From Bradyrhizobium diazoefficiens (GTDB lineage: Bacteria; Pseudomonadota; Alphaproteobacteria; Rhizobiales; Xanthobacteraceae), in NCBI RefSeq assembly GCF_016616425.1, contig NZ_CP067101.1, forward strand, positions 2,604,001 to 2,668,000: 64,000 nucleotides of DNA, read 5' to 3'. The translations under genes and the position numbers were made by a program. This document shows, in pieces, positions 16,022-33,200 of this stretch. The stretch's first letter is position 1. Every line of letters begins with the position of its first letter. The notes below the pieces were generated by a model. It did no database searches and was not told the DNA's origin. It saw only the letters and a list, made by a program, of their open reading frames with translations.

Positions 16022-16926
16022 CCGCGAATAACTTCATCCACATAGCGGGCTGACATCGGGCTCAAAACCCGATTCAGTTCGCCGAACACTCTGCGTGCGG
16101 TGATGCCCATCCATTTGGTGGGCAACAACTCGGGCGGGAGTCCCGGGTCCATGAACGGCAAACGGCGCCATTGGGTGACCATCGGAATGTATATGCGGAA
16201 AGCCTCGCGATAAACATCCTTCCCTTCACGGCCATAAGAGAGCCAGCGGTCCGCTTCCAGTTCAAAAGCATCAACGAATGCGCGGTACTCGCCTTCCACC
16301 GCGGTGAGGTCCCACCATTGGGCGACCTTGCGTCGCAAGTCTCCCGGCCCAACCGGCTGGGACGTGAAGAATTCCACGTACTCCGACAGCTTGTGCTCAC
16401 TCATATAGTTGAGCGCCTCGATCTGCAGTCGGACAGGAGCGATGCAAAGACCCGGCGCGACGGTGCCGAACCCCAAGCGCGCGAGCCCGGCGCGAATCTT
16501 GTGGCGTTTTTGCCGTTCGCTTTCGGGAACGGAGAACGAGGCGAGCAGCCAAGGATCACCTATGCTCGCCGTACGCGGGGAGAAGATCCGTTCGTCGCCA
16601 GCCAACATATGCGGCTCGAGGTTGGCTGACATCGCGTAACCGCTCGCGCCGCCCGATTTCTTGCTGACGAGGACGCCCTTTTGCTTCAGCCGCGAGATAG
16701 ACGACCGAACACTAGCAGGTTCATATCCCAGTTCCGAAAGAAGCCGAACCACTGCGGCGACCGGAATGATCTTGCCGGCCGGTCGACCGTAGAGACCGAA
16801 TACAGTCACAACGTAGCGGTGGTGCGCTGCCTGCTCATGACCGCCGGGTTCTCGGCCAGCAATGATCTCATCAACGGCAATGGTGGCGTTTGACGCTGTT
16901 GCCACGCGCGGTTTCGATGGACCCAT
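16018..16926 (-). CDS. PaaX-family transcriptional repressor
   Basis: 302 residues. The N-terminal winged helix (YVVTVFGLYGRPAGKIIPVAAVVRLLSELGYEP followed by VRSSISRLKQKGVLV) and the PaaX-like middle and C-terminal parts (WDL-AVEGEYRAF, TQWRRLPFMDPGLPPELLPTKW) are all present; the DPGLP-ELLP-W motif is diagnostic. E. coli PaaX is released by phenylacetyl-CoA. Phenylacetate catabolic genes are absent here, so it probably answers a different aryl-CoA or ester-derived signal for the 7.7-16 kb module. Confidence 0.9.
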   Translation of the reverse strand: MGPSKPRVATASNATIAVDEIIAGREPGGHEQAAHHRYVVTVFGLYGRPAGKIIPVAAVVRLLSELGYEPASVRSSISRLKQKGVLVSKKSGGASGYAMSANLEPHMLAGDERIFSPRTASIGDPWLLASFSVPESERQKRHKIRAGLARLGFGTVAPGLCIAPVRLQIEALNYMSEHKLSEYVEFFTSQPVGPGDLRRKVAQWWDLTAVEGEYRAFVDAFELEADRWLSYGREGKDVYREAFRIYIPMVTQWRRLPFMDPGLPPELLPTKWMGITARRVFGELNRVLSPMSARYVDEVIRG

Positions 16927-18480: not shown

Positions 18481-19698
18481 TCAGAGGCGCGTGCCGGGGG
18501 CGAGTTCCAGACCGAGCAGGAGGCGACCGTAGGCCTCCGAGATTGGTTCGGGCTGGAGGAGGAAGTGAGAACTCATCGCATGGATGTCGCGGAACAGACG
18601 CTCAATCCGCGTTCCTTCCGGCAGGAGGGATCCGCCGAGCGCGGCGAACAACCGTTGCGCCGAGCTCAGCGCTTGCCGGGAAGCGATCGCGATCTTCGTG
18701 CGGCTCAAACCACGATCCTCATGTGTGAGGGGACCTTGAACGATCCGGTTTTCGATCGCCGCCGTTTCTGAGATCAGGAAATCCCGCAGGAAGCTCATTG
18801 TGGCGGCGCTGGTTCCGGCATCGACATGAGCGATCTTGTCGTTGATCTGGGCTTGCTGATTGCCGGAGCTGACGCGACCCCGAATGATCTTGATGCACTC
18901 TTCGCTACAAGCACTGGCGACGCCAAGCGTTGGAGCAAGAACCGACATCGCGTTGGCAGTGTTCAAGGGAAATTCGTAGACCGGTTCGGTGTTTTGGCAG
19001 GTCGAGTGCTTGTTGCCCGCTTGCAGTTCCGTCCAGCTCATGAAGCGATGGGACGGGACAAATGTGTTGCTGAGAGCGACGTTCTTGCTGCCGGTGCCCC
19101 GCATACCCATCACCCGCCAGCTCTTGTGATCGATAGTGAACTCGGACTGGGGGACGAGGACAACATGAGGGGCCGATGTCTCGCCAGAACAGGGAATGTT
19201 GATCAGGAGGCCAAGCCAATCCGAAACATCGACGCCGGATGCATAACGCCATCGACCGCTCAGGACGATGCCGCCCTCGACAGGTTCGATCTTGATGTCC
19301 TGGCCGACGCCACCCGTCAGCATCGGGACGATTGGAGATACGCCGGGAGAGAAGATCTCTTGTTGGGCGTCCGCGGAGAACTTGCCGAGCATGATGATGT
19401 TGGCGCTTGTCAGTCCGGCGAGCCAGGCGGAGGACGAACAGCCTAGCGCAATGTTGAAAGTCGCCTCCCAAGCGAAACGGGGCGAGACGCCGAATCCACC
19501 GAAGCGAGTGGGACGCATCAGGTTAAACAGCCCGGTCTCGAACAGACGTTCCGCAACATCATCGGGGATGCGGCGTGCTTCCTCGATCCGGGTCGCTTGT
19601 TCGCTCAGCCACGGCGCGAGGGCAGCGGTCTTCTCGATTACCTCTTCGGCCCCGGCTTCTGTTGAAGCGGGACCTGCGGTGCGTTGAGCCAAGCCCAT
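18481..19698 (-). CDS. Group D flavin monooxygenase, acyl-CoA dehydrogenase fold (module 2)
   Basis: 405 residues, related in plan to the enzyme at 13435 but clearly different in sequence. Features are EEARRIPDDVAERLFETGLFNLMRP, GGIVLSGRWRYASGVDVSDW, SWRVMGMRGTGSKNVALSNTF and AQRLFAALGGSLLPEGTRIERLFRDIHAMSSH; the RD-HA-S-H ending is shared with HsaA/IacA-like oxygenases. It needs reduced flavin, likely from the reductase at 20478. I place the start at 19698, seven bases behind AGAGGAGG; ATGs at 19725 and 19731 are possible. The promoter region shared with the Crp/Fnr gene contains palindrome 1. Confidence 0.85.
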   Translation of the reverse strand: MGLAQRTAGPASTEAGAEEVIEKTAALAPWLSEQATRIEEARRIPDDVAERLFETGLFNLMRPTRFGGFGVSPRFAWEATFNIALGCSSSAWLAGLTSANIIMLGKFSADAQQEIFSPGVSPIVPMLTGGVGQDIKIEPVEGGIVLSGRWRYASGVDVSDWLGLLINIPCSGETSAPHVVLVPQSEFTIDHKSWRVMGMRGTGSKNVALSNTFVPSHRFMSWTELQAGNKHSTCQNTEPVYEFPLNTANAMSVLAPTLGVASACSEECIKIIRGRVSSGNQQAQINDKIAHVDAGTSAATMSFLRDFLISETAAIENRIVQGPLTHEDRGLSRTKIAIASRQALSSAQRLFAALGGSLLPEGTRIERLFRDIHAMSSHFLLQPEPISEAYGRLLLGLELAPGTRL

Positions 19699-19758
19699 TG
19701 CGATTGCCTCCTCTCGCGCTATCATTCCCATGGGGTACCCCGGGTCGTCGCCGCGCGC

Positions 19759-19774
19759 TGTATCGCGGGATACT
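19759..19774. promoter_or_regulatory. Palindrome 1: candidate Crp/Fnr-family operator
   Basis: TGTATC-GCGG-GATACT lies midway between the divergent monooxygenase (start 19698) and Crp/Fnr gene (start 19814), 39 bases before the latter. It has the half-site geometry of FNR/FixK boxes (5-4-5) but a different sequence, and recurs twice more in this module (21096, 25959). Confidence 0.6.
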
Positions 19775-19813
19775 GTTTGCTGTTCCTTTGGAAAAATCGA
19801 CGGAGGGCCATGA

Positions 19814-20473
19814 ATGACGAAGAAGCCCACCGCGACCTGGCGCATGACGGATGCGCTCGCGGCCAAGCTAAAATCGTTCGAGGGCAAGGTGCGGCTGCGC
19901 CGCTTTGCGGAAGGCGAGCAGCTATATCGGCAGGACGAGGTCAATACCTGCTTCTATTTCGTGAAGTCGGGGCTTGTTCAGATATCAATCTTCAGGCGGG
20001 ACGGCACCGAAGTGGTACTCGAGAACATGGGGCCAAATGCCTTGTGCGGCGAAGGCGCCGCCTTCGACGGACTGCCGAGGTTCTCGACCGCTGTCGCCGT
20101 CGAGACGACCGAAGCGCTCGAATTCGATACAGCCCGCCTCGAAGTGTTGATGCGGGAGGACCCCGAATTCGCATTGGCGTTGCTGAGGCTGACGAGTCTC
20201 AAGCAACGGATTCTCGCGCTGCGACTGGAGCACCTTGTCTCTAACGATCCAGAGGAGCGCATCCTCGAACTGCTCAGCCGTTTGAGCAGGATGTTCGCCG
20301 TCGATCATGAACGAGGCCGGAAGATTTTGACGTATCTCACGCACGAACAGATCGCGTCGATGACCGGCACCTCGCGCGTCACCGTCACCCGCACGCTTGG
20401 CCGGCTGCGCGACAAGGGAATGTTGTCCGTCGAGGACGGCTACACGATCCTGGCCAGAAATCTCGACATTTGA
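19814..20473 (+). CDS. Crp/Fnr-family transcriptional regulator
   Basis: 219 residues. The N-terminal cyclic-nucleotide-type barrel (residues 20-120) keeps a GEGAAFDGLPRFSTAVAV phosphate-loop-like stretch; the dimer helix follows (about 122-142), then the winged helix YLTHEQIASMTGTSRVTVTRTLGRLRDKGML (175-204). No four-cysteine cluster is present, so it is not an oxygen-sensing Fnr. In the recognition helix the glutamate conserved in Crp and Fnr is replaced by Val189, between Arg188 and Arg193, which implies an altered operator. It sits inside the catabolic module and three matching palindromes flank its operons. Confidence 0.9.
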   Translation: MTKKPTATWRMTDALAAKLKSFEGKVRLRRFAEGEQLYRQDEVNTCFYFVKSGLVQISIFRRDGTEVVLENMGPNALCGEGAAFDGLPRFSTAVAVETTEALEFDTARLEVLMREDPEFALALLRLTSLKQRILALRLEHLVSNDPEERILELLSRLSRMFAVDHERGRKILTYLTHEQIASMTGTSRVTVTRTLGRLRDKGMLSVEDGYTILARNLDI

Positions 20474-20477
20474 GGCT

Positions 20478-21002
20478 TCATCCCGTCCACCAGAGCTCGT
20501 CGATGCGCCCGGGTTGCTCGAGTCCGTCGTAAGGAAGGCGCACGTACTTGCCCCCATGATAGAGCAGCGGCGTTGCCGCGGTCGCCGGACCGAACATCGC
20601 ATCGATACCGCCGATGAGGATGCGGTGATCTCCGCCCGGATGTTCTGCGACCAGCCGGCAACGGAAGGTCGCGTTCGCTCCCTCGATCCAGGGAACGGAT
20701 ACGCTCTGCTGCCAGCGCCATGTCGGCTCCGGCAGAGGCCTGCCGGCATGATGGATCGAGACGTCCTGTTGGTCCGCCGACAGTACGTTGACCGAGAACG
20801 CCCCGACCGCGGCGATCCTCTTTGCCGTCGCGCTGGTCAGCGATGCACAAAACAACAACAGCGGCGGATCGAGGCTCACCGGTGTCAAGGAGTTCACGGT
20901 CATACCGATCGGCCCTGCTTCTCCCGCTACCGCGATCAACGTCACGCCAGTCGTTAGCCTGCGGAACAGCGTTCGAAAATCGTGGGTGATATGTCCTTCC
21001 AT
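20478..21002 (-). CDS. Flavin reductase-like protein (module 2)
   Basis: 174 residues with the flavin reductase FMN-binding fold: FRTLFRRLTTGVTLIAVAGEAGPIGMTVNSLTPVSLDPPLLLFC, FSVNVLSADQQDVS, and a C-terminal TPLLYHGGKYVRL (the YH-G-Y motif). It is the expected partner of the monooxygenase at 18481, comparable to RutF. ATG 21002 is chosen because the family match begins there; ATG 21029 is the alternative. It is divergent from the ABC importer, with palindrome 2 in between, and converges on the Crp/Fnr gene with a 4-base gap. Confidence 0.85.
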   Translation of the reverse strand: MEGHITHDFRTLFRRLTTGVTLIAVAGEAGPIGMTVNSLTPVSLDPPLLLFCASLTSATAKRIAAVGAFSVNVLSADQQDVSIHHAGRPLPEPTWRWQQSVSVPWIEGANATFRCRLVAEHPGGDHRILIGGIDAMFGPATAATPLLYHGGKYVRLPYDGLEQPGRIDELWWTG

Positions 21003-21095
21003 GCCGCGGCTCTCCGTCTGTCTGCCCATTCGAGATGCCGAGCCCTACCAACTTCGGTCGGACGCCGGCTGTATCCAGCAGCACAAAATCGCGGA

Positions 21096-21111
21096 TGTAT
21101 CCGCAGATACA
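21096..21111. promoter_or_regulatory. Palindrome 2: candidate Crp/Fnr-family operator
   Basis: TGTATC-CGCA-GATACA is a perfect 6-4-6 inverted repeat between the flavin reductase (start 21002) and the ABC binding protein (start 21169). A further TGTATC half-site stands at 21070-21075. Same motif as at 19759 and 25959. Confidence 0.65.
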
Positions 21112-21168
21112 GCACCCGCGGGGCGGCGGTGTCACCATTGCCGCGACAATGGCAACCGTGAGGGACAC

Positions 21169-22383
21169 ATGAGGACGACCACGAAGCGCGGGTTCATCGC
21201 ACTCGGCGTGACGACGTTACTTGCCGCCGGATCCATCACATTCTCAGGGTCTAGCCCTGTGCTGGCCCAGGACAAGCCCGAACTGCGCATTGCGGCGATC
21301 ATTGCCGTGACGGGGCCTGCGTCGGCCCTCGGAGCACCGGAGCGCAACGCGGTCGATTTGTTTGACAAGACGTGGTCGAGTCGCAACGATCTCCCGTTCA
21401 GGATCAAGGTCATTTCATACGACGACGGCTCGGACCCGACCAAGTCCGTCAGCCTGACGCGCAAAGCGATCGAAGAAGATAAGGCTGACGTCGTGGTCTG
21501 CTGCACAACGACGCCGAGCTCTATGGCCATCATCGATACGGTCAGCGCCGCCAGGGTCACGATGATCTCCATGGCTTCGTCGCTGTCCATCGTCGAGCCG
21601 GCCAGCGCGCGCCCATTCACTTTCAAGACGCCGACGTCGGACAAGCTGATGATCCAGCGCACGCTGAACTACATGAAGCGCCAAGGCATCAAGAAAATTG
21701 GGTTCTTCGGTCTGGAGGACGCCTATGGTGAAGGCGGGCTGAAGGAGCTTCAGAACGTCGTCAAAGATACGGGCATTGAGCTTGCGGCCACCGAGCGCTT
21801 CGCCCGCCAGGATACCAACTTCACGCCCCAGGCTCTGCGTCTGAAGCAGGCTGGGCTGGATGCGGTGTACATCCACGCCATCCCGCCGTCGGCGGACCTT
21901 GCCCATGAGGCGTTGAAGCGGGTCGGTTACACCGGGCCGATCTATCATGGCGGTGGCTCCTCCATCAACGCGTTCGTCGATATCGGCAAGGCAAACGTCG
22001 AAGGCGCCATCGTCGGCGTCGGAGCGCTGAACGTCTACGACCAGATCAAGCAAGACAATCCGCTCCGGCCGGTGCTCGCGAAGTTCGCCGAGCTTTTTGA
22101 CGGCGTCTACGGGAAGGGGAAGGTGGACCTTTTCGCCGGCCAGTCTTGGGACGCGATGATGCTGGCCGTCAACTCCTACCAGAGAGCGCTCAATTCGGGA
22201 GCGAAGCCCGACGATCTCGCCTCAATGCGGATCGCGATCAAGGATGCGATGGAACACACCAAAGATTGGCCCGGCGTGAACGGTGTCTTCAACATCACGC
22301 CGACCGATCATCTCGGCCTCGACAAGCGCTCGACCTTCCTGTCGCAGATCAAGGGCGGGAAGTTCGTCCTGATCGAGGAATGA
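21169..22383 (+). CDS. Branched-chain-amino-acid-type ABC transporter, periplasmic binding protein
   Basis: 404 residues with a twin-lysine/arginine signal region (MRTTTKRGFIALGVTTLLAAG, cleavage near VLAQ) and the type-1 periplasmic fold of LivK-like proteins: AAIIAVTGPASALGAPERNAVDLF, KVISYDDGSDPTKSVSLTRK, VDVVVCCTTTP-like ligand strand and KKIGFFGLEDAYGEGGLKEL. Members bind amino acids, aromatic acids, amides or urea. It opens the importer operon 21169-25956; the ATG follows GTGAGGGACAC. The frame stays open upstream, but the signal peptide fixes the start. Confidence 0.9.
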   Translation: MRTTTKRGFIALGVTTLLAAGSITFSGSSPVLAQDKPELRIAAIIAVTGPASALGAPERNAVDLFDKTWSSRNDLPFRIKVISYDDGSDPTKSVSLTRKAIEEDKADVVVCCTTTPSSMAIIDTVSAARVTMISMASSLSIVEPASARPFTFKTPTSDKLMIQRTLNYMKRQGIKKIGFFGLEDAYGEGGLKELQNVVKDTGIELAATERFARQDTNFTPQALRLKQAGLDAVYIHAIPPSADLAHEALKRVGYTGPIYHGGGSSINAFVDIGKANVEGAIVGVGALNVYDQIKQDNPLRPVLAKFAELFDGVYGKGKVDLFAGQSWDAMMLAVNSYQRALNSGAKPDDLASMRIAIKDAMEHTKDWPGVNGVFNITPTDHLGLDKRSTFLSQIKGGKFVLIEE

Positions 22384-22386
22384 TCG

Positions 22387-23415
22387 TTGTTTGACACGGT
22401 CCTCTTTCTTCTCGCTGACGGCGTCACCAACGGCGCTGTCTACGGGCTCCTCGCCCTGAGCCTCATTGTGATCTACACGGTGACGCGGGTGGTCAACATC
22501 GCGCAGGGCGAGTACGTGACGCTGGGAGCGCTCTCGTTCGCGAGCGCGCTGTCGGGTTCCTTCAATGTGCTGAGCGCCATCGTGGCCGGCGGTCTGGCCG
22601 CATTCGCGCTAAAGGACGTTGTGGACCGACGCCTGACCGGTGCAATGAGAATCCGCATCGTTCTTTCGCGGGCGCTCTGGATTATCTTCGTGCTCGCGAC
22701 GGCCTGGCTCGCCAATCTCCTGCCGGGATCCTATTGGCTCGCCGTTCTTGCATCGCTGGTTGCGACCGCTTCGTTGGGGACGCTGATCTACCGATTGACC
22801 GTCGAGCCGGTGTCCGCTGCCTCGCCTATCGTGCTGCTAATCGTCAGCGTGGGCGTCTACATGGTGCTTCACGGGACTGCGGTGATGATCTGGGGCGCGG
22901 AGCCTCGGTCCGTTCCGCCGATGGTCGACGGCGGGGTCGAACTCGGCCCCGTATTCGTCACCTTTCAGAGCCTCTGGATATGCGCTTCGTCGTTGGTTGC
23001 GATGATCGCGCTCTATCTCTTTTCCGAAAGGACCTTGATCGGTCAGGCACTGCAGGCCACGGCCGTCAACAGGACCGGAGCGCAGCTTTGCGGCATTCCG
23101 GTCAGCGTTGCCGGTCAGTTGAGTTTTGCGATCGGCGCTGGCTTCAGCGCTCTTTCGGGCCTCCTGCTGGCACCGCTCATCACAGCGAACTACGACATGG
23201 GTCTCCCGATCGGCCTGAAGGGCTTCGTTGCCGCGGCCTTGGGCGGGATCGTGGAATATCCGACCGCGCTGGCCGGTGTCTTGTTGGTGGGACTGACCGA
23301 GTCCTTTTCGGCGTACCAGGTGAGCGCGTATCGCGACGTCGTCGTCTACCTGATGGTGATACCGATCCTGCTCTGGCGAAACGCGGTGCGCCCTCCCGAA
23401 ACGCATGGGCATTGA
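22387..23415 (+). CDS. ABC transporter permease, LivH type
   Basis: 342 residues, eight or more membrane helices. It carries the LivH marks GAVYGLLALSLIVIYTVTRVVNIAQGEYVTLGA near the N terminus and the EAA-like loop LIGQALQATAVNRTGAQLCGI. The TTG start lies 3 bases after the binding-protein stop. It pairs with the LivM half of the next gene to form the membrane channel. Confidence 0.9.
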   Translation: MFDTVLFLLADGVTNGAVYGLLALSLIVIYTVTRVVNIAQGEYVTLGALSFASALSGSFNVLSAIVAGGLAAFALKDVVDRRLTGAMRIRIVLSRALWIIFVLATAWLANLLPGSYWLAVLASLVATASLGTLIYRLTVEPVSAASPIVLLIVSVGVYMVLHGTAVMIWGAEPRSVPPMVDGGVELGPVFVTFQSLWICASSLVAMIALYLFSERTLIGQALQATAVNRTGAQLCGIPVSVAGQLSFAIGAGFSALSGLLLAPLITANYDMGLPIGLKGFVAAALGGIVEYPTALAGVLLVGLTESFSAYQVSAYRDVVVYLMVIPILLWRNAVRPPETHGH

Positions 23416-23417
23416 GC

Positions 23418-25211
23418 ATGTCATTCTCGCCGAAGGTCCAAGGGTCCTGGTGTACGCCGAACGTTGCTTCGATTGCTGTCGCTCTCGGGCTGTTCGTGGT
23501 GGCCACCGCGATCGCCAGTTTCGCTCCTCAGTACAACGTCACTCTTCTGGCGACAGTGGGGCTCTCGGCCGTCGCCGCGATGGGGCTCACACTCCTGCTG
23601 ATCGCGGGACAGGTCTCGCTGGGCCAGGCGGCATTCATGGCCGTCGGCGCTTACGTTTCCGCGATACTTGCCCGTGATCACGATTTTCCCACGATCCTCG
23701 CGCTGCTCTCCGGCGTCGCCGCGTCTGCGGTCTGCGGAATTATCGTGGGTGGAGTCACGCTGAGACTGAAGGGACACTTCCTGCCGCTCGCTACACTGGC
23801 CATGGGCATGGCCAGCAGTGCCGCGATCGTGGCTGCCGGTTCCGTGACGGGGGGCGCCTCCGGATTGGGCCAGATCCCGCCGTTGTCCATCGGTTCGTTC
23901 GAACTGGTGGGCGATCGCATGTTCGCGATCGTGGTCTGGTCGATCGTGGCGGTTGCGGGTGGCGGATTCGCGCGGCTGCTCAACACCCGGACCGGACGCG
24001 CCATCGCGGCGCTGAAGACCGATATCGAGATGGCGGAAGTGTTCGGCGTGAACGCCATGCGTCTGCGGCTTTTGGTGTTCGTCGTGGCTGCCACGCTGGC
24101 GGGGCTTTCGGGAGGGCTCTATGCCTTCTATTTCAAGTTCATCAGCCCGGCGCCCTTCGGATTGACCGCGAGTATCAATCTTCTGATCGCGTGCATCTTC
24201 GGGGGGATGTCGCATCCGTTCGGCGCCGTCCTCGGCGCGTCTGCCGTCGCCGCGCTCGAAATGTTTCTGCAGAATACCGTCGCACGCATGCTCGGACTTT
24301 CCGGGAACGTTGAGATGATCGTGTTCGGCATCGTGCTGATCGGAGTTCTGCTGAGGTGGCCGGGAGGCATCTGGTCCGTGCTGCATCGTATCTGGCCGGC
24401 ATTCTCGATGTCCAAACCGACCCGCAACATCGAACTCACGCCGTCTAAACGCGGCGCCGAGGGCGACGATCTCCTGTCGGTCAACGGAATAGGGAAGAGG
24501 TTTGGGGGCTTGACGGCGCTGCGCGACGTTTCGTTTTCGGTCGGTGCCGATCAGATCGTCGGGCTCATCGGCCCCAATGGAGCTGGCAAATCCACGACGT
24601 TCAACATCGCGACGGGTCTCACCGAACCGTCCGAGGGCAGCGTTATCCTCATGGGAGCGCCGCCCCCGTCGCAGGTTTCGGATCTCGTTCATCGCGGTGT
24701 TTCCCGCACCTTCCAGCATGTTCGGATTGTCCCGGAGCGGACGGTCCTGGAGAACGTCGCGTTCGGCGCCTACGCGCAAGGGAGATCCGGCATAGTCGCC
24801 GGGATGTTTGGCCTGGATCGGGCCGAAGAGGCCGCGACCTTCGCGAAGGCCTGGCGCGCGCTTGAGATTGTCGAACTGGAAAGCCTCGCCCATGAGCCCG
24901 CGTCGCGCCTGGCGATGGGGCAAGCCAGGCTGGTAGAGGTCGCGCGCGCCCTGATCAGCCGCCCGCGGCTGCTGCTGCTGGATGAACCCGCCGCGGGCCT
25001 GCGCACCGGCGAGAAACTCAAGCTCGTCACGCTGCTGCACCGTCTCAAGCGCGCGGGAATGTCGGTGCTGCTCGTCGAACACGACATGGACCTGGTCATG
25101 AACTGCGTCGATCGGGTGGTCGTTCTGGATCGCGGGCAGGGGTTGATGACCGGCCATCCGGATGAGGTCCGCCGGGACGAACGCGTCATCGCAGCCTATC
25201 TGGGGACGTAG
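23418..25211 (+). CDS. Fused ABC permease-ATPase (LivM-LivG)
   Basis: A 597-residue fusion. Residues 1 to about 325 are a LivM permease (TLLLIAGQVSLGQAAFMAVGAYVSA is the LivM mark; EVFGVNAMRLRLLVFVVAATLAGLSGGLY follows). Residues 345-597 are a LivG ATPase with Walker A GPNGAGKST near residue 387, a signature stretch LAMGQARLVEVARAL instead of LSGGQ, and Walker B RLLLLDEPAAGL. Such fusions occur in rhizobia and hold one ATPase to one permease. The ATG follows the LivH stop by two bases. Confidence 0.9.
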   Translation: MSFSPKVQGSWCTPNVASIAVALGLFVVATAIASFAPQYNVTLLATVGLSAVAAMGLTLLLIAGQVSLGQAAFMAVGAYVSAILARDHDFPTILALLSGVAASAVCGIIVGGVTLRLKGHFLPLATLAMGMASSAAIVAAGSVTGGASGLGQIPPLSIGSFELVGDRMFAIVVWSIVAVAGGGFARLLNTRTGRAIAALKTDIEMAEVFGVNAMRLRLLVFVVAATLAGLSGGLYAFYFKFISPAPFGLTASINLLIACIFGGMSHPFGAVLGASAVAALEMFLQNTVARMLGLSGNVEMIVFGIVLIGVLLRWPGGIWSVLHRIWPAFSMSKPTRNIELTPSKRGAEGDDLLSVNGIGKRFGGLTALRDVSFSVGADQIVGLIGPNGAGKSTTFNIATGLTEPSEGSVILMGAPPPSQVSDLVHRGVSRTFQHVRIVPERTVLENVAFGAYAQGRSGIVAGMFGLDRAEEAATFAKAWRALEIVELESLAHEPASRLAMGQARLVEVARALISRPRLLLLDEPAAGLRTGEKLKLVTLLHRLKRAGMSVLLVEHDMDLVMNCVDRVVVLDRGQGLMTGHPDEVRRDERVIAAYLGT

Positions 25212-25212
25212 C

Positions 25213-25956
25213 ATGCCGGACCTGCGCGTCAGCGGATTGAACGTGGGGTACGGCCGGGCCACGGTCATCGAATCCCTCGATCTCGATGTGAAGTCGGGAG
25301 AACTGGTGACGGTTCTCGGCGCCAACGGCGCCGGCAAGTCCACCCTTTTGAACGGCATCATGGGTCTTTGTCCGCCGCGGGCGGGGACGGTCACGCTCGA
25401 CGGCGTGGATCTCGCCGGCCTCCGTCCGGAGCAACTGGTCGGTCGCGGCGTGATCCTGGTACCGGAAAGGCGCGAGCTGTTCGGCAATCTTCCCGTGGAG
25501 GTCAATCTTCGGCTCGGCGGTTATCGGACCGGTGCGCCGGCGCAGTCATTGGAGAGGATCTACGGGCTGTTTCCGATCCTCGCCGAGCGTCGCCGTCAGA
25601 AGGCCGCGACGCTGTCGGGCGGCGAACAACAGATGCTCGCGGTCGGCCGGGCATTGATGGCCGCTCCCCGGCTCCTGATGCTCGACGAGCCCTCCATCGG
25701 ACTGGCACCGCTGATCGTTCAGGAGATCCTGCGAGTCATCGGCCAACTCAAGTCTGAAGGGCTGACGATCGTCCTCGTTGAACAGAACGCGCGGCTCGCG
25801 TTGTCAGTCGCCGACCGCGGCTATGTGCTCGAAGTAGGACGCATCGTCCTGCAAGGCTCGAGCGTCGAGCTTTCGGCGGACCCGCGTCTCAGCCAGGCTT
25901 ATCTCGGAGGTGCCTCGGACTACGCGGCCGCGCGGGATCAAGTCTATGCCGATTGA
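25213..25956 (+). CDS. ABC transporter ATPase, LivF type
   Basis: 247 residues with Walker A GANGAGKST, a Q-loop region, signature LSGGEQQMLAVGRALM, Walker B RLLMLDEPSIGLAP and the H-loop replaced by the LivF-typical LVEQNARLALS. The ATG lies one base after the stop of the fused gene. It completes a five-component importer in four genes. The terminal residues (SDYAAARDQVYAD) are short for a LivF tail and unremarkable. Confidence 0.9.
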   Translation: MPDLRVSGLNVGYGRATVIESLDLDVKSGELVTVLGANGAGKSTLLNGIMGLCPPRAGTVTLDGVDLAGLRPEQLVGRGVILVPERRELFGNLPVEVNLRLGGYRTGAPAQSLERIYGLFPILAERRRQKAATLSGGEQQMLAVGRALMAAPRLLMLDEPSIGLAPLIVQEILRVIGQLKSEGLTIVLVEQNARLALSVADRGYVLEVGRIVLQGSSVELSADPRLSQAYLGGASDYAAARDQVYAD

Positions 25957-25958
25957 TG

Positions 25959-25974
25959 GGTATCGCCGGATACC
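25959..25974. promoter_or_regulatory. Palindrome 3: candidate Crp/Fnr-family operator
   Basis: GGTATC-GCCG-GATACC is a perfect inverted repeat just behind the LivF stop and 66 bases before the FAD oxidoreductase ATG (26041). A half-site TGTATC follows at about 25996. It suggests that the downstream operon has its own promoter under the same regulator. Confidence 0.6.
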
Positions 25975-26040
25975 AACTTGCATCGCATCGGCCTGTATCG
26001 TTTGCCGACCGGATTTAGGTGCGCGGCGCGAGGTTGAGCT

Positions 26041-27633
26041 ATGACGACATACGATGGAATCATCATCGGGGCCGGCCATAACGGTTTGATCACGCAAGCC
26101 TACCTGGCGAGGGCGGGTTTCAAGGTGATTTCACTCGATGCCGGTTCGGTTGCAGGCGGCGGCCTGTCGACCGTCGGGGACCAGAACCATCCCGGCTTCC
26201 TTCATAACCTGCATTCGTATTTCCACCGTGGCATCACCAGCATGCCGTGGTTCACCGAACTTGAACTGGCGCGCCACGGAGTGGAGTACATCGGCAACGA
26301 TCTGTACGTGTCGGTGCTGCAACGGGACGGCAGTGTGCTCCAATGGTGGGACGACTTCGAGCAGACCTATCGATCCTTTGCCGCGATCGATCGGGACGAT
26401 GCCGACCGCCTTCGCTTCTGGCGTGATCGCTTCATTCCCATCACCCGCAACATCATTCGTCCTGAAGCGGCCGCGCCGCCGGTTCCGGAGGCCGTGCGGC
26501 GAGAGCGTCTGCAAAAGACCGAAGACGGCCGCCTGTTGCTGCAGGTCAGCGCGCTCAGCCCCTATGAATTCGTTTCGCAGGAATTCCGCCATCCGGCGAT
26601 CAAGGGAGCGTTGCTGTTCATCAACGGAATGCGCGAGATGGATTTGCGCGCCAAGGGATTCGGACATCACCTGCCATCGCTGTTTGCTTCCTCCGCAAAG
26701 GTACAGACTTGCCGAGGCGGGGCGGTGTCGCTCGCACGCGCTCTGGTCCGTTCGATCGAGGCCGCGGGTGGAACCGTGCGCACCAACGCCCAAGTCAAAC
26801 GCATTCTGTCCAACGGAGCGCGCGCAACTGGCGTGGAGCTTCATAATGGCGAAGTGCTGACGGCCAGCAGATTTGTCGTATCGAGCGTCAATCCGCAGAT
26901 GACCTTTCTCGATCTGATGGATCGCTCGGAATTGCCGGCAGGATGGGCAGGGAAGGCCGAGAAGTTCGAATACAATGCGCTCGGACCCTTGTTCACGCTT
27001 CATTTGAACCTGAAGCAGGCGCCGATCTACAAGGCCGCGGATCGCTTTCCGGAGATCCAAAGGTCACTGATGGTGATCATGGGCATCGATCACGTCGATA
27101 CGTTCCTCGATCTCGCCCGACGCCACGACGAAAAGGAGATCGGTCCGTCGGTGCTGTGGGGTGCGACGCCGACCGCACTCGATCCGTCGCAGGCGCCGGA
27201 AGGCCATCACACCGCATTCATGTGGGAGAAGACGCCGTACGCGCTGCGGGGAAGCCCGTCAAATTGGATCGAAGAGAAGCCGAAGCACGCGAAACGCATG
27301 TTCGACTTGTGGTGCGAATATGCTCCCAACCTTCGCACGGCGACGATCGACAGCTTCGCCCAGAGTCCCTACGAGACTGCGATCCACAATCCCAACATGC
27401 GCGAGGCTGACGTCTTGATCGGCGCGTTCAGGAACGGACAAGTCGGAATAGGACGACCGTTCGCCGGCGCAGGAGACTACCGCACTTTCCTCGATGGTCT
27501 CTATCTCGGCGGTTCGTCGTCGCATCCAGGCGGCAATATCACCGGCTTGCCGGGATATATCGCCGCCCAGGTCATCATCGGTGATCAGTCGATGAGGCAA
27601 GCCAATGCGACGGCGCATGCGGACGTTCGATGA
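26041..27633 (+). CDS. FAD-dependent oxidoreductase, phytoene-dehydrogenase/amine-oxidase type
   Basis: 530 residues. The N terminus YDGIIIGAGHNGLITQAYLARAGFKV is a dinucleotide-binding fold (GxGxxG), with AGGGLSTV closing the FAD site; further marks are GGAVSLARALVRSIEAAGGTVRTNAQVKRI and the C-terminal GLYLGGSSSHPGGNITGLPGYIAA, the FAD-binding end of CrtI-like enzymes. Soil bacteria carry many such proteins in catabolic clusters; they desaturate or oxidise C-N or C-C bonds. No carotenoid genes are near. Its stop overlaps the next ATG (ATGA). Confidence 0.85.
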   Translation: MTTYDGIIIGAGHNGLITQAYLARAGFKVISLDAGSVAGGGLSTVGDQNHPGFLHNLHSYFHRGITSMPWFTELELARHGVEYIGNDLYVSVLQRDGSVLQWWDDFEQTYRSFAAIDRDDADRLRFWRDRFIPITRNIIRPEAAAPPVPEAVRRERLQKTEDGRLLLQVSALSPYEFVSQEFRHPAIKGALLFINGMREMDLRAKGFGHHLPSLFASSAKVQTCRGGAVSLARALVRSIEAAGGTVRTNAQVKRILSNGARATGVELHNGEVLTASRFVVSSVNPQMTFLDLMDRSELPAGWAGKAEKFEYNALGPLFTLHLNLKQAPIYKAADRFPEIQRSLMVIMGIDHVDTFLDLARRHDEKEIGPSVLWGATPTALDPSQAPEGHHTAFMWEKTPYALRGSPSNWIEEKPKHAKRMFDLWCEYAPNLRTATIDSFAQSPYETAIHNPNMREADVLIGAFRNGQVGIGRPFAGAGDYRTFLDGLYLGGSSSHPGGNITGLPGYIAAQVIIGDQSMRQANATAHADVR

Positions 27634-27992
27634 TGGACATGATGGATCGTTTGATTGATTTCCGCGATCGGCGGGTCGAGCCAGTCGTCAATGCGCCTTT
27701 CTTCGCCGAGCTGCTGTCGGGCAATCCGACGACGACCGCCTGGAGAATCGCGACCAGCGATGATGGCAAGGTTTTTTCAGGGTTCTGGTCGGCGACCCCG
27801 GCCAAGTGGCGCATGGACTACGCGGTCTGGGAATTCTGCCACATTCTCGAAGGCGCCTGCGTAGTCACTCCGGAGGGCGGAGCTCCTAAAGAGTATGGCC
27901 CAGGCGATACGTTCGTGTGCCAGCCTGGTCTTCGCGGGACGTGGGAAGTGATCTCGCCCGTGAAGAAGGCCTTCGTCGTACGAAAGACATAG
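27630..27992 (+). CDS. Small cupin (DUF861-type)
   Basis: 120 residues with the cupin_3 pattern: KVFSGFWSATPAKWRMDYAVWEFCHILEGACVVTPEGG then YGPGDTFVCQPGLRGTWEVISPVKKAFVV. The metal ligands are reduced compared with catalytic cupins; only one histidine (CHILEG) and the glutamate in WEF remain. Relatives often occur with ureidoglycolate or amine catabolism. It overlaps the preceding stop by four bases and is translationally coupled. Confidence 0.8.
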   Translation: MMDMMDRLIDFRDRRVEPVVNAPFFAELLSGNPTTTAWRIATSDDGKVFSGFWSATPAKWRMDYAVWEFCHILEGACVVTPEGGAPKEYGPGDTFVCQPGLRGTWEVISPVKKAFVVRKT

Positions 27993-28000
27993 CTGCTTTT

Positions 28001-29398
28001 ATGATGATCGACGGAGAAGCCCACCGGTTGCACGAGCGCTACAAGAGCGGCGACATCTCGCCGGTCGAGGTGGCGCGGGCTCAGCTTGACGCGATCCCGG
28101 GTCTGGACCGAGGCGTCAACGCCTTCGTCCTGGTCGATGACGCCGTCGCGATGGAAATGGCGCGGGCCTCCGAAGAGCGGTATCGCAGGGGCGACGCGCT
28201 CGGCCCGTTGGACGGCGTCACGGTCACGATCAAGGACACGCTCAACGTCACCGGTTGGCCAACGCGGAGGGGATCGCGGACCACTTCCGCAACCGCAGTG
28301 TCGAAGGACGCTATCTCGATCGCCCGTCTCCGATCGTCCGGCGCCGTCTTCCTGGGCAAGACTACGACTCCCGAATTCGCCTGGAAGGGGCTGACCGAAA
28401 GTCCGCTCTATGGTGTGACGACGAACCCGCTGGATTCAGATCGGCATGCCGGCGGCAGCAGCGGCGGCGCGGCCGCGGCGACCGCGTTGGGGCTCGGGAC
28501 CGTGGGCATCGGCACCGACGCGGCGGGATCGGTTCGCATTCCCGCGGCGTTCTGCGGCGTGGTCGGATACAAGCCGACTTTCGGGACGATACCGCTCGAT
28601 CCGTATCCTGCCGCGTTTTGGCAGCTTCCGCATATCGGGCCGATCACCCGCAGCGTGGCAGATGCGGCGTTCGCCGCCTGCGTCATGAGCGGAGCGTTCG
28701 GGGCGGACACGTCATCGTTGTGCCAGATCCCGCTGCACGACCGCCTGTCGGAAGAGCATGTGCTAAACGGCATCCGGATCGGAGTTCCAGCCGGACTGAG
28801 CCGTCACCTCGATCCGGACGTGAAGGCGGCGTGGGAAGACGCGCTCTCGGCCGTCTTCCCGGATTCCGCGATCACGACGGTCGAGGTGCCGATCGACGAA
28901 TCGAGAGGCATCGTCGGTGCTCTCTATCGTCTCGGCTGCGCCTACGCCGTGTCGCAGATCCCGGAAGGCAGACGGGCCGATCTGCATGGCGATCTCCTGC
29001 AGTTCATCGATCCGGTGAAGACGCTCCGGACCGAGGACCTGCTTGAACTGCAACGCCGTCGCGAGGAGATCGCGAGCCAGACCTCGGCGCTGCTGACCGA
29101 TAGCATCGACATCCTGCTCACGCCGACCATGCCGTGCCTGCCGCCGCGCACGGACGCTCCTTCCGCCGCGGCGGCCGACTGGTTCGAATGGTGTCCGTTC
29201 ACCCCGCTGTTCAATCTGTCGCATGCGCCGGCCATTTCGTTACCCTGGCACGGTAAAGCCGGTTCGCTTCCTATCGGCTTGCAGGTCGGTGCCGCGCCGG
29301 GAAGAGACGGCATCGCCGTGGCGGTCGCCGCGTTGATCGAAGCTCAGGACCGGCGCCGGGCTCCCACGCGATTGCGGGTTGCCGTCGATGTCGGTTGA
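28001..29398 (+). CDS. Amidase-signature hydrolase
   Basis: 465 residues. The catalytic triad of the amidase-signature family is visible: Lys in VTVTIKDTLN, the cis-serine in GGSSGGAAAATALG and the nucleophile serine in GTDAAGSVRIPAAFCG. It should hydrolyse an amide to acid and ammonia in the cytoplasm, the job RutB does in pyrimidine breakdown although with another fold. The ATG at 28001 follows the cupin stop by 8 bases; the upstream open frame is ignored. Its 3' end overlaps the next gene by 11 bases. Confidence 0.9.
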   Translation: MMIDGEAHRLHERYKSGDISPVEVARAQLDAIPGLDRGVNAFVLVDDAVAMEMARASEERYRRGDALGPLDGVTVTIKDTLNVTGWPTRRGSRTTSATAVSKDAISIARLRSSGAVFLGKTTTPEFAWKGLTESPLYGVTTNPLDSDRHAGGSSGGAAAATALGLGTVGIGTDAAGSVRIPAAFCGVVGYKPTFGTIPLDPYPAAFWQLPHIGPITRSVADAAFAACVMSGAFGADTSSLCQIPLHDRLSEEHVLNGIRIGVPAGLSRHLDPDVKAAWEDALSAVFPDSAITTVEVPIDESRGIVGALYRLGCAYAVSQIPEGRRADLHGDLLQFIDPVKTLRTEDLLELQRRREEIASQTSALLTDSIDILLTPTMPCLPPRTDAPSAAAADWFEWCPFTPLFNLSHAPAISLPWHGKAGSLPIGLQVGAAPGRDGIAVAVAALIEAQDRRRAPTRLRVAVDVG

Positions 29399-30239
29399 TC
29401 TGGCGTCATCCCGACCTACGCGGGGCACGTTGCAGGTGGGTAACCTGGCCACGGGCGGATCGGCCCATCTCTCGTTCTTGCGGGCGGGACGGGGGCGGCC
29501 GGTTCTCCTGTTGCACGGCTTCGCCTCCGACGCGGCGGAGGATTGGGTCGAGACCGGGTGGTTCGATGCCCTGGTGGCCGCGGGATACGACGTGGTCGCG
29601 CCGGACCTGCGGGGCCACGGCCTGAGTGTGAAATCGCGCGATCCCGCGGACTACCGGCTGGACGCCTTCACCGCAGACATCGCGGCGCTACGCAGCCATT
29701 GCTGGGGCGACGTTCGCTTCAGCCTGATCGGATATTCGATGGGGGCTCACGTGGCGATGTCCGTGGCGCTTGCGTCCTCCGGTCGGGTCGAGCGCCTGAT
29801 ATTGGGCGGCATGGGCGATCGGATCGCCGCCACCGTAGGCCTCGCCCCGGAATTCGCGGACGCGTTAGACGCGCCGGATGACGATCGGCTGGAAACGTTT
29901 CCGCCTTACGTCGTGCGGTTCAGGCGGCATGCGGCATCCCGCGCGTTCAACGATCTGGAAGTTCTGGCCGCATGTCTGCGCGGGCAATCCGGCCTCTTCG
30001 ATCTCGGACGGCTGGCGGCGGTAACTATGCCGGCGCTGGTCATCGTGGGCGAACAGGACAAGTTGGCAGGCGATCCGTATCCCGTCGCGGCGCTGTTCGC
30101 GGCGGGGATCGGAGCGACCGTGCTGGGTGCCAATCACGCCTCGGCGCTCGCCGACCGAAATTTGCGCGCGCGGGCCTTGCTACATCTCGAACACGACTTC
30201 GCAACGATCGCAGCGTGCAAGGCGGTGATTCCGGAATGA
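29388..30239 (+). CDS. Alpha/beta hydrolase
   Basis: 283 residues with the fold's usual markers: PVLLLHGFASDAAEDW (oxyanion strand, HGF), VVAPDLRGHGLS, FSLIGYSMGAHVAMSVAL with nucleophile Ser in GYSMG, an acidic residue in VIVGEQDKL and the catalytic His in GANHASALA. It may cut an ester, thioester or carbamate. The start overlaps the amidase end, and its stop overlaps the next ATG (ATGA), so the group is tightly coupled. A comparable alpha/beta hydrolase (RutD) stands in the Rut pathway. Confidence 0.9.
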   Translation: MSVDLASSRPTRGTLQVGNLATGGSAHLSFLRAGRGRPVLLLHGFASDAAEDWVETGWFDALVAAGYDVVAPDLRGHGLSVKSRDPADYRLDAFTADIAALRSHCWGDVRFSLIGYSMGAHVAMSVALASSGRVERLILGGMGDRIAATVGLAPEFADALDAPDDDRLETFPPYVVRFRRHAASRAFNDLEVLAACLRGQSGLFDLGRLAAVTMPALVIVGEQDKLAGDPYPVAALFAAGIGATVLGANHASALADRNLRARALLHLEHDFATIAACKAVIPE

Positions 30240-33200
30240 ACAGCAAACTTCAGGATACGCCGGTCATGCGCGAGGTATCGCTTTCGGACAAGTTCGACGT
30301 GATGGAAGGCACGATCTTCATCACCGGCAAGCAGGCGTTGTCGAGAGTGCCCCTGCTGCAACGGCTGCTCGACGACAAGCGCGGATTGCGGACAGCCGGC
30401 TACATCTCCGGCTACCGGGGATCTCCGCTGGGGACGATCGACAACGAGCTCCTGAAGATCGCCGATCGCTTGAAAGCCGCGGATATCATCTTTCAGCCCG
30501 GGCTGAATGAAGATCTCGCGATGACCGCGGTCTGGGGCAGTCAGCAACTCGACTTCGTGCCGGGGCGCCGCGTCGATGGCGTGTTCGGCATGTGGTACGG
30601 CAAGGGGCCCGGCGTCGACCGGTCCGGCGATGCGATCAAGCACGCCAACATGTCGGGCACCCATCCGAACGGCGGCGTGCTGCTGGTGTTCGGCGACGAC
30701 CATGCCGGCAAGTCCTCTTCTCTGGCCCACCAGAGCGATCTCGCGCTTGCCGCCCACGAAGCTCCGATTCTCTATCCGTCGGATGTCCACGACATCTTCA
30801 AATTCGGCCTGGCCGGATTCGCGATGTCGCGAGAGACCGGACTTCTCGCGGGATTGAAGCTCGTCAACGAGACGGCGGACTGCACCCAGGCCGTGGCGTT
30901 TTCGCTCGACGAAATCGCGCCCGTGCTCGATGCAAACCCGACGTCGAACAACGATGTCAGCATCCGCGTCGAGATGCTGGCGGTGACCGCGCAGGACCAG
31001 CGGATGGTGCGGAACAAGCTTCCACGCGTCCACGCGTTCACGCGGCGGAATGCCATCGATCGGGTTGCCTTCGGCTCTGATCGGCCCTCTCGTCTGGGAA
31101 TCGTGACGGCCGGTAAGGCTTTCCAGGATGTCATCGACGGACTGCGACTTCTCGGCATCGACGACGCTATCGCGCGCCGCTTGGGGATCGGCATCCTGAA
31201 AGTGGGTCTGATCTATCCGCTCGATCCGGAGCCTCTGAACGCGTTCGCCCAGGACGTTCCGGAGCTTCTCTTCGTCGAAGAGAAACGCCCGCATATGGAG
31301 CTGCAGGCAGCCGCGCTGATGTACCACCTGACCCGGCGGCCGAACATCTCGGGCAAGCTGACGCCGGAGGGCGAGCCGCTTCTGCCCGCGGATGAGCCGC
31401 TGGATGCTGCTACTGTCGCTTTGGCGGTGGGTCGACGCATTCTGGCTACAGCTTGGGCAGAGTCTCCCGACCTCGCGGCGCTACGCGGCGCATTTGACGG
31501 CCTCTCTGGACGTGCGGCCTCGTTGAAACAGATTGAGGTCGGACCGCTGGCGCGCCGTCCCGTATTCTGTTCCGGCTGTCCGCACAACCGGTCGACCAAG
31601 CTGCCGGAGGGCTCGTTCGGGGTGGCCGGGATCGGCTGCCACGGCCTTGTGCAGTTCATGGACCGCAATCCGCTCCCTTGCACGCACATGGGGGCCGAAG
31701 GCGTCAACTGGATCGGGCTGTCTCATTTCACCGATACGAAGCATGTCTTCGTAAATCTCGGCGACGGCACGTTCTCCCATTCGGGATCGCTGGCGATCCG
31801 TGCAGCGGCCGCCTCCGACGCGAACGTGACGTTCAAGATCTTGGCCAACGACGTGGTCGCCATGACCGGCGGTCAGACCATCGAGAGCGGTCTTTCGGTC
31901 GGAGCCATGGTCCGGCAGGTTCTGCTCGAAGGGGCGAGGCGCGTCGTGGTCGTGGCGGAAGATCCGAACGCTGTTCGGTCTGGCCAGTCGTTGCCGCCCG
32001 AGGTCGCAATCGTCCACCGCACACACATGGAGAACGTGCAGCGCGAACTGCGGGAAGTTCCGGGAACGACCGTGATCGTTTACGTCCAGATCTGCGCCAC
32101 CGAAAGGCGCAAGCGACGCAAGCGGGGAAAGGCCCCCGCCGCTTCGAAACGCGCCGTCATCAATTCCGCGGTCTGCGAGGGGTGTGGGGATTGCTCCCGC
32201 GCCTCGAACTGCATGTCAGTGCAGCCGCTTGAGACGGAGTTCGGCCGCAAGCGGCGCATCGATCAGGCAAGCTGCAACAGCGACATGTCCTGTCTCGAAG
32301 GATTTTGTCCCTCGTTCGTGACCATCGAAGACGGTGCGCTGAACAAGCCCGAGCCGATCGATCTCGAGGCGGCTGCCGCTGGTCTGCCGAAGCCGGAAGT
32401 GTGGAGGGCCGACCGCGAAGCGTTCGGCGTCCTGCTCGCAGGTATCGGCGGAACGGGTGTCGTGACAGCCTCCGCGATCGTCGGCATGGCGGCTCACTTG
32501 GAGGGACGGGGCGTCGGGATCTACGACATGACCGGACTCGCTCAGAAGGGAGGGGCGGTCTACAGCCATCTGCGGATTCTGCCGTCGCCGGCGAGCGTGG
32601 CGCCGATGCGCCTCGGCCTGGAGGACGCCGACCTCCTGATCGCCTCGGACGTTGTGGCGGCGACCCAACTCGACTCGTTAAAGACGGTCGGGCTGATGAC
32701 CACGATGCTGGTCGATGATCAGGTCGTCGCGACGCAGGCGTTTCATGAGAACGGCAACGTCGACCTTGACGCAGAACGTCTCGTTCGTCGCCTCGAGAAG
32801 CGCGGCGAGAAGAAGCCGGTGCGAATGCCGGCGAATGATCTCGCCCGTCGCGCATTCGGCGACCCCGTCTCCGCCAATATGATCATGCTCGGATACGCAT
32901 TCCAGATGGGGGCGTTGCCTCTCACCCAGGAAGCGATGGAACAGGCGATCCGGCTAAACGGCGCCGACATAGCCGGAACGCTGCGCGCCTTCCGCCTGGG
33001 TAGACTCTATTTCGCGGATCCGGAGACCGCGGAGCGCCTTCTGGCGCCGGATGAGACGGCGATGTCGATGGCGCGCAAGCCCCTCCAGACTCTGCAGGAG
33101 CGCATCAACGTCCGGGTTGACGCGCTGCGCGCCTACCAGGACGCGGACTATGCCGAACGCTTCCGTCTCCTCGTCGAACGCGTGCGCGCCGCCGAAGACA

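What the first reader, a model, noticed from the sequence alone, without database searches (positions are those of the whole stretch)
19759..25974. Three copies of a KGTATC-N4-GATACH palindrome define a local Crp/Fnr regulon
TGTATC-GCGG-GATACT (19759), TGTATC-CGCA-GATACA (21096) and GGTATC-GCCG-GATACC (25959) stand in the three promoter regions of the 18-34 kb module, one beside the Crp/Fnr gene itself. Their geometry is that of FNR/FixK boxes, but the half-site GTATC differs from TTGAT or TGTGA. The chance of three such sites in just these intervals is low. Together they predict control of monooxygenase-ridA, crp, flavin reductase, the ABC importer and the amidase-oxidoreductase operon by one regulator.
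Basis: partly seen in the sequence, partly recalled or inferred. Interest (0 to 1): 0.82.

Follow-up and report, generated by a model that had tools for sequence, protein, structure and literature searches.

The report
NtcA-type boxes of a local activator
Three matching DNA boxes in a soil bacterium's catabolic gene cluster are most likely landing sites for the regulator encoded beside them, which appears to use a DNA-reading code best known from the cyanobacterial nitrogen regulator NtcA to switch on neighbouring genes.

Summary
Observation confirmed and strengthened. GTATC-N4-GATAC occurs 3 times in the window (0.02 expected) and 6 times in the 7.14-Mb genome; 3 of the 6 lie within 6.2 kb. 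The boxes recur at the same places in close orthologous modules of the genus: mox/crp 7 of 7, fre/sbp 6 of 7, before fadox in 2 of 2 that carry fadox. In wider relatives GTA-N8-TAC is the best shared palindrome upstream of the regulator gene, 23 of 28. Correction: by base identity it is not an FNR/FixK box but GTA-N8-TAC, the NtcA box, and the regulator's recognition helix (SRVTVTR) matches NtcA's (TRVTVTR), not CRP's SRETVGR. New: a -10-like element lies 28-30 bp from the box centre (TANNNT 5/9/8 against 0.30 per other offset in 70 flanks from genomes not used to find it), but not at distant or non-carrier sites. That is class II (-41.5) activator spacing and predicts activation of mox-ridA, the importer, fre (through a second, weaker box) and the fadox operon. 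In the window the crp side lacks it. Binding, start sites and inducer are untested. New member of the Crp/Fnr kind.

The parts
19759..19774 (.). Box 1, TGTATCGCGGGATACT, between divergent mox and crp
   Evidence: exact core in 7 of 7 close orthologous loci
19732..19737 (-). Predicted -10 of mox (TACCCC; TA 29 bp from box 1 centre)
   Evidence: TA at 29 or 30 bp in all 11 loci lined up
21096..21111 (.). Box 2, perfect 12 of 12 palindrome TGTATCCGCAGATACA, sbp side of the fre/sbp intergenic region
   Evidence: exact core in 6 of 7 close orthologous loci
21133..21138 (+). Predicted -10 of sbp (CACCAT; 29 bp from box 2 centre)
21070..21085 (-). Box 2b, weaker box TGTATCCAGCAGCACA (TGTGCTGCTGGATACA read towards fre); TGTACTGCTGGATACA in locus L027
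21042..21047 (-). Predicted -10 of fre (TAGGGC; TA 30 bp from box 2b centre)
25959..25974 (.). Box 3, GGTATCGCCGGATACC, before fadox
   Evidence: found in the 2 close orthologues with fadox, not in the 4 where amidase follows livF directly
25996..26001 (+). Predicted -10 of the fadox operon (TATCGT; 29 bp from box 3 centre)
19814..20473 (+). crp: Crp/Fnr regulator, 219 aa, recognition helix GTSRVTVTRTLGRLR
   Evidence: PF00027 and PF13545; alignment A2
18481..19698 (-). mox: flavin-dependent monooxygenase-like protein, HsaA / p-hydroxyphenylacetate hydroxylase type
   Evidence: below the equivalog cut-offs; start codon
18029..18442 (-). ridA: Rid family protein, follows mox
20478..21002 (-). 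fre: flavin reductase (start placed by comparison with homologues)
21169..22383 (+). sbp: periplasmic binding protein of a branched-chain amino acid-type ABC importer
22387..25956 (+). two permeases and two ATPases of the importer
26041..27633 (+). fadox: FAD oxidoreductase
27630..33751 (+). cupin, amidase, alpha/beta hydrolase and POR-type ferredoxin oxidoreductase genes, inferred to be co-transcribed with fadox
   Evidence: co-transcription inferred from spacing

Best explanation
The Crp/Fnr protein at 19814-20473 binds as a dimer to TGTATC-N4-GATACA, a GTA-N8-TAC box of the NtcA type, and activates the catabolic genes around it. Shown by computation: the boxes, their conservation, the NtcA-like recognition helix, and a -10-like element 28-30 bp from the box centre. 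Inferred: binding; a box centred near -41.5 that contacts RNA polymerase in class II fashion in place of a -35 element; activation of mox-ridA, the importer operon, fre (through box 2b) and the fadox-cupin-amidase operon. At crp itself, box 1 centre lies 47.5 bp from the start codon with a GGAGG ribosome site between and no -10 at the activator spacing, so repression of crp by its own product is the likelier reading in the window; six more distant loci have a CAATCT element at 29 bp on the crp side, which would suit positive autoregulation there. The inducer is probably an acidic intermediate of the aromatic-type pathway rather than cAMP (weak inference).
For: Rarity and clustering. Position-specific conservation in the genus and beyond. 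Test of 64 trinucleotides x 21 spacers upstream of crp: GTA-N8-TAC best, tied with the nested TAT-N6-ATA of the same sites, 23 of 28 sequences, next 17; in the 21 not close to the window 16, next 11. Perfect 16-mer in 7 of 8 genus genomes with a close orthologue (window included), 10 of 249 others. Helix RVTVTR identical to NtcA, V where CRP has E181, invariant in the 26-row family alignment and present in 13 of 14 further relatives, RVTITR in the other. None of the six other own-genome Crp/Fnr-like helices that could be read shows it; the seventh match covers only the N-terminal part. Promoter spacing: in 112 non-redundant oriented flanks TA at 28/29/30 bp is 11/16/17 against 2.28 per other offset (highest 8), TANNNT 10/12/10 against 0.40 (highest 2). 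In 70 flanks from genomes not used to notice the spacing TANNNT is 5/9/8 against 0.30 (highest 2). Controls: in 12 decoy palindromes from the same loci no count at 28-30 exceeds the highest at another offset; TA at 28-30 in 5 of 60 flanks of non-carrier sites and 5 of 53 of remote sites in carriers, against 25 of 70 in the unseen module loci.
Against: No binding, expression or start-site data. Only 2 close orthologues carry the box 3 context. The mox and sbp -10 elements of the window are poor (TACCCC, CACCAT). Non-carrier sites show NANNNT 8 times at 29 bp against a mean of 2.37 (highest elsewhere also 8), so some of those sites may be promoter boxes too. With the stricter box score (11 of 12 or better) in unseen loci, plain TA at 28-30 (1/4/5) does not exceed the highest count elsewhere (6), though TANNNT does (0/4/5 against 1). 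5 of 28 upstream regions lack the box (L057, L061-L064), although each of these loci has a box elsewhere. Box 2b keeps only 9 of 12 consensus positions, a score that 11 other places in the window, outside the four boxes, reach (10 places) or exceed by one (1 place).
Confidence: 0.82

Rival explanations
1. The same regulator binds the same boxes but represses all the promoters, being released by its ligand.
For: At crp the box sits where it would hinder transcription. NtcA can also repress, from a box downstream of the -35 (passages of PMC3898017).
Against: The -10 lies at the class II activator distance in mox, sbp, fre and fadox of the window and in many relatives, and where a -35 would stand I read the edge of the box and no TTGACA-like hexamer (read by eye).
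Confidence: 0.1
2. The boxes belong to another regulator (for instance the PaaX-like protein at 16018-16926 or another Crp/Fnr protein), and the neighbouring crp is only one of its targets.
For: A PaaX-like gene lies about 3 kb from box 1. Seven other places in the genome match the Crp query.
Against: GTA-N8-TAC stands upstream of crp in 23 of 28 loci from many genera. The six other own-genome helices that could be read are not of the RVTVTR type; the seventh match stops before the HTH. Conservation of paaX with the module was not tested.
Confidence: 0.06
3. The three palindromes are a chance cluster without function.
For: Exact sites also occur in genomes without the orthologue: 38 sites in 17 genomes, which had been picked for having at least one.
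Against: Cluster probability 3e-9 to 4e-7 and position-specific conservation.
Confidence: 0.01

Closest known systems
NtcA, global nitrogen regulator of cyanobacteria (PDB 3la2, 8h3v)
   Same: GTA-N8-TAC box; recognition helix RVTVTR; promoters with box near -41.5 and -10 TAN3T
   Different: 27% identity overall; NCBIfam NtcA model 64.6 bits against a cut-off of 244.95; Arg129 and Glu134 of the 2-oxoglutarate site replaced by Lys and Ala; local catabolic regulon, not global nitrogen control
E. coli CRP (CAP)
   Same: Domains; 16-bp symmetric site in the same register; Arg180 and Arg185 of the helix kept (numbering recalled)
   Different: 21% identity; Glu181 is Val and the site has A, not G, at position 7 of TGTGA; Ser83, Thr127 and Ser128 aligned to Phe, Leu and Ala
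FNR / FixK
   Same: Arm length 5 and spacer 4; same superfamily
   Different: Box bases GTATC instead of TTGAT (recalled); no cysteine in the first 45 residues; helix has V where FNR has E (recalled)
Actinobacterial Crp proteins (PDB 4cyd, 4byy, 3d0s; names GlxR and M. tuberculosis CRP recalled)
   Same: Best full-length sequence matches in the PDB, about 70 bits
   Different: Helix SRETVNK in the three chains whose alignments were shown

Membership tests
Crp/Fnr superfamily | cNMP-binding-type N domain plus Crp-type HTH | tested here: met
   PF00027 69.8 bits, PF13545 51.8 bits, both above cut-off
NtcA | GTA-N8-TAC box | tested here: met
   consensus of NtcA from passages of PMC3898017
NtcA | recognition helix RVTVTR | tested here: met
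NtcA | box about 41.5 bp from the start, -10 TAN3T | tested here: inconclusive
   -10 spacing fits; no start site is mapped
NtcA | orthology (NCBIfam equivalog) | tested here: not met
   64.6 bits against cut-off 244.95
NtcA | 2-oxoglutarate residues Arg88, Arg129, Glu134 | tested here: not met
   Arg88 kept, Arg129 to Lys, Glu134 to Ala (alignment; residue roles from passages of PMC12937710)
CRP (cAMP receptor protein) | cAMP contacts Glu72, Arg82, Ser83, Thr127, Ser128 (list recalled) | tested here: not met
   first two kept, last three changed to Phe, Leu, Ala
CRP (cAMP receptor protein) | TGTGA-N6-TCACA site (recalled) | tested here: not met
   position 7 is A in both halves of boxes 1-3; one half of box 2b reads TGTG
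FNR / FixK | TTGAT-N4-ATCAA box (recalled) | tested here: not met
FNR | N-terminal cysteine cluster for Fe-S | tested here: not met
   no Cys among the first 45 residues (translation)
class II activator promoter | dependence on the activator and on its contacts with RNA polymerase | not testable with these tools
   needs in vitro transcription

The most novel reading that the evidence does not exclude
A widespread Crp/Fnr subfamily (Alphaproteobacteria, by genus names also Betaproteobacteria, and in MAGs Acidobacteria) uses the NtcA recognition code outside cyanobacteria as a pathway-specific class II activator of aromatic or N-aromatic catabolic modules, sensing an acidic pathway intermediate. 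Adjacent paralogues with Ile at the key helix position go with GTA-N8-TAC boxes before ring-cleavage dioxygenase genes, so the superfamily's helix-to-base code could be read off natural variation.
Probability: 0.45. Interest if true: 0.58.

Novelty: new member of a known kind. Interest (0 to 1): 0.45.

Why it matters
It turns an uncharacterised catabolic cluster into a testable regulon with named promoters, predicted start positions and a predicted direction of control. It gives a natural case, outside cyanobacteria, in which a helix residue (Val instead of Glu at CRP position 181) and a base (A instead of G at position 7) go together, useful for reading Crp/Fnr specificity from sequence. The -10 spacing test, run over many loci with decoy, remote and non-carrier controls, is a cheap way to tell activator boxes from others.

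Tried and rejected
Own genome's other three exact sites: L001 lies inside a glyoxalase-type ORF; L005 (GTATCGATCGATAC) precedes an MFS transporter ORF, and the same core occurs in non-carriers G018 and G022, so probably another regulator's; L006 has TAGGCT at 30 bp but I found only short ORFs after it, left open. Remote sites in carrier genomes do not show the -10 signature (5 of 53 flanks), so a genome-wide regulon was not claimed for them. The idea that the crp side is also a class II promoter in the window was rejected (no -10 at 29-30 bp). The Glu181 specificity mutants of E. coli CRP (Ebright and co-workers) are recalled; two searches did not find such papers, so they are not used as a test. 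The NtcA-DNA structure paper (PMC11850224) is not held. In the held library no paper contains any of six spellings of this box. The listings showed no title or abstract on such a box in proteobacteria; those papers were not opened except as named next, and PMC5398030 and PMC7662524, which hold one half-site string once, were not opened. Papers seen as passages: PMC3898017, PMC2633013, PMC12937710, PMC4999443 (0 occurrences of GTATC or GTAN8TAC). All others: search listings only. No structure prediction was run.

Rows dropped: L066 (34% partial match) was left out; its helix reads RVTVRK. Several genomes were fetched twice (L026-L036 and part of L039-L051); raw counts and the 39 of 52 module sites include such duplicates, so I rest on the flank statistics, which remove flanks 60% or more identical over 70 bp. 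One search considered only ORFs of 90 codons or more starting 45-220 bp from a box. Of 20 non-carrier genomes, G007 and G019 had no site and G011 (17 sites, mostly one repeated sequence) was left out of the control; of the 38 sites in the other 17, 37 were read. Of the remote carrier sites, G086:C115:10112 was not fetched.

Full report
What was checked. The three palindromes are at the stated coordinates, and exact GTATC-N4-GATAC occurs nowhere else in the window. With one mismatch allowed only one more site appears, at 9525. The genome, a single contig of 7,144,346 bp, has six exact sites. Three lie in 6.2 kb here, which chance gives with probability 3e-9 (rate of the other three sites) to 4e-7 (full rate, 16-kb module).

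The neighbourhood. Site 1 lies between divergent mox-ridA and crp, site 2 between divergent fre and the importer operon, site 3 between the last importer gene and fadox. mox resembles two-component flavin monooxygenases that hydroxylate phenolic rings (HsaA 210 bits, p-hydroxyphenylacetate hydroxylase 133 bits, both below their equivalog cut-offs), fre resembles their flavin reductases, ridA is a Rid-family protein, and a cupin, an amidase, a hydrolase and a POR-type ferredoxin oxidoreductase follow fadox. In 27 named related loci (some short) mox was found in 25, ridA in 24, fre in 24, the importer's binding protein in 19, fadox in 3, and a ring-cleavage dioxygenase in 13; a representative of the last passes the HpaD cut-off (373.8 against 321.4 bits), and tblastn found no such gene in the window. 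This points to catabolism of an aromatic, perhaps nitrogen-bearing, compound; the substrate is not known.

Conservation in the genus. Among 265 same-genus genomes searched, window included, the regulator has matches of 86-94% identity in 7 others and of 58-60% in 3 more. In those 7 loci the exact box stands between mox and crp in 7 of 7 and between fre and sbp in 6 of 7; in the seventh (G174), where no importer gene was found in the stretch read, the fre side has GTACTGCTGGATAC, which is the box 2b position. Site 3 stands before fadox in the 2 that carry fadox and cupin at this place and is missing in the 4 where the amidase gene follows livF directly. The three 58-60% relatives have GTA-N8-TAC between mox and crp in 3 of 3, each with one base of the ten-base core changed. 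The perfect 16-mer TGTATCNNNNGATACA occurs in 7 of the 8 genomes with a close orthologue (window included) and in 10 of 249 others; in the window only box 2 fits this pattern, so this is chiefly a test of box 2.

Conservation beyond the genus. One scan of named genomes with a family alignment gave 28 loci, 27 used, from Bradyrhizobium, other Hyphomicrobiales and Rhodobacterales-type genera, three genera that I know as betaproteobacteria, and two acidobacterial MAGs. In the 250 bp upstream of crp plus its first 20 bp, out of 64 trinucleotides x 21 spacers, GTA-N8-TAC is the palindrome shared by most sequences: 23 of 28, tied only with the nested TAT-N6-ATA, next 17; in the 21 not close to the window 16, next 11. 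This test used no prior motif. The five without it are L057 and L061-L064; boxes lie elsewhere in those loci.

Which regulator. The recognition helix reads GTSRVTVTRTLGRLR; NtcA has GSTRVTVTRLLGDLR and CRP GCSRETVGRILKMLE. NtcA binds GTA-N8-TAC (PMC3898017, passages). Residues 13, 14 and 18 of the CRP HTH contact DNA (PMC2633013, a figure legend passage); by my count these are Arg, Val and Arg here, so of the three only the middle one differs from CRP, and the box differs from TGTGA first at position 7 (G to A). That this pairing is causal follows from the recalled CRP Glu181 mutants and is not tested here. RVTVTR is invariant in a 26-row family alignment, present in 13 of 14 further relatives read and RVTITR in the other. 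The paralogues of about 40% identity found near the module in relatives have RITVTR or RVSVTR, with boxes of the form GTA-N8-TAC nearby, among them one before the dioxygenase gene. Of seven weaker Crp/Fnr-like matches in the window's genome, six helices could be read and none is of this type; the seventh match covers only the N-terminal part.

How it works. Lined up on the box, the promoters of mox (11 loci), sbp, fre and fadox share a -10-like element with its TA (or the A of CANNNT) 29-30 bp from the box centre. For fre the distance is kept from a second, weaker box 2b rather than from box 2; box 2b is found in all 8 close loci, window included. Over 112 non-redundant flanks, both directions of each site included, TA occurs 11, 16 and 17 times at 28, 29 and 30 bp, against 2.28 on average elsewhere (highest 8), and TANNNT 10, 12 and 10 against 0.40 (highest 2). 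In 70 flanks from genomes not lined up the figures are 6, 10 and 9 against 1.56 (highest 7) and 5, 9 and 8 against 0.30 (highest 2). In twelve decoy palindromes from the same loci no count at 28-30 bp exceeds the highest at another offset. Flanks with a TA at 28-30 bp: 25 of 70 in the unseen module loci, 5 of 60 at exact sites in genomes without the regulator, 5 of 53 at remote sites in carrier genomes. Against this, non-carrier sites show NANNNT 8 times at 29 bp, above their mean of 2.37 but equal to their highest value elsewhere. A box centre 29.5 bp upstream of position -12 is a box at -41.5, the class II arrangement described for NtcA-activated promoters. Hence activation is inferred for mox-ridA, the importer, fre and the fadox operon. 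On the crp side the window has no such -10 and only 47.5 bp between box centre and start codon, so box 1 probably overlaps the crp promoter.

Inducer. The 2-oxoglutarate contacts of NtcA named in passages of PMC12937710 are Arg88, Arg129 and Glu134; here they are Arg, Lys and Ala. Of the five recalled cAMP contacts three are changed. Neither ligand is therefore likely; two basic residues in the pocket would suit another acidic compound. This is a guess from an alignment at 21-27% identity.

What it is not. It is not an FNR/FixK box (bases differ, no N-terminal cysteine cluster, helix differs), not a CRP box, and the protein is not NtcA (64.6 bits against a cut-off of 244.95). It works like NtcA at the DNA.

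Limits. Everything rests on sequence. Binding, direction, start sites and inducer need the experiments listed. The extra sites elsewhere in carrier genomes are at background level by the spacing test and are not claimed for this regulator.

Noticed in passing
L032, L037, L109-L111 (genome G205, contig C83, 610-681 kb): 6 of the 11 exact boxes of this genome lie within 70 kb, together with the regulator and two homologues of it; possibly a larger island using the same box. The four boxes outside the module core do not all show the -10 spacing.
   Followed up: partly
L019-L025 and e.g. L029:11967-12560: A second Crp/Fnr paralogue of about 40% identity with helix RITVTR is found near the module in relatives, and a GTA-N8-TAC box with TA at 28 bp precedes an HpaD-type dioxygenase gene (19 of 19 entries, duplicates included).
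   Followed up: partly
genome G011: 17 exact sites, most of them the identical GTATCGCCCGATAC, suggesting a dispersed repeat; not examined.
   Followed up: no
L006:1501-1514 (genome position 5487051): Exact box with TAGGCT 30 bp from its centre but only short ORFs seen downstream; could be a distant regulon member or chance.
   Followed up: partly
window 33997-34515: SDR-type ORF of 172 aa matches only positions 71-236 of a 236-position family model, so it may be truncated or start elsewhere.
   Followed up: no
L028:17261-17300 and L028:2755: Two boxes in tandem, 26 bp apart, before a second flavin reductase-like gene matched in two pieces, and another exact box before a second binding-protein gene.
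   Followed up: partly
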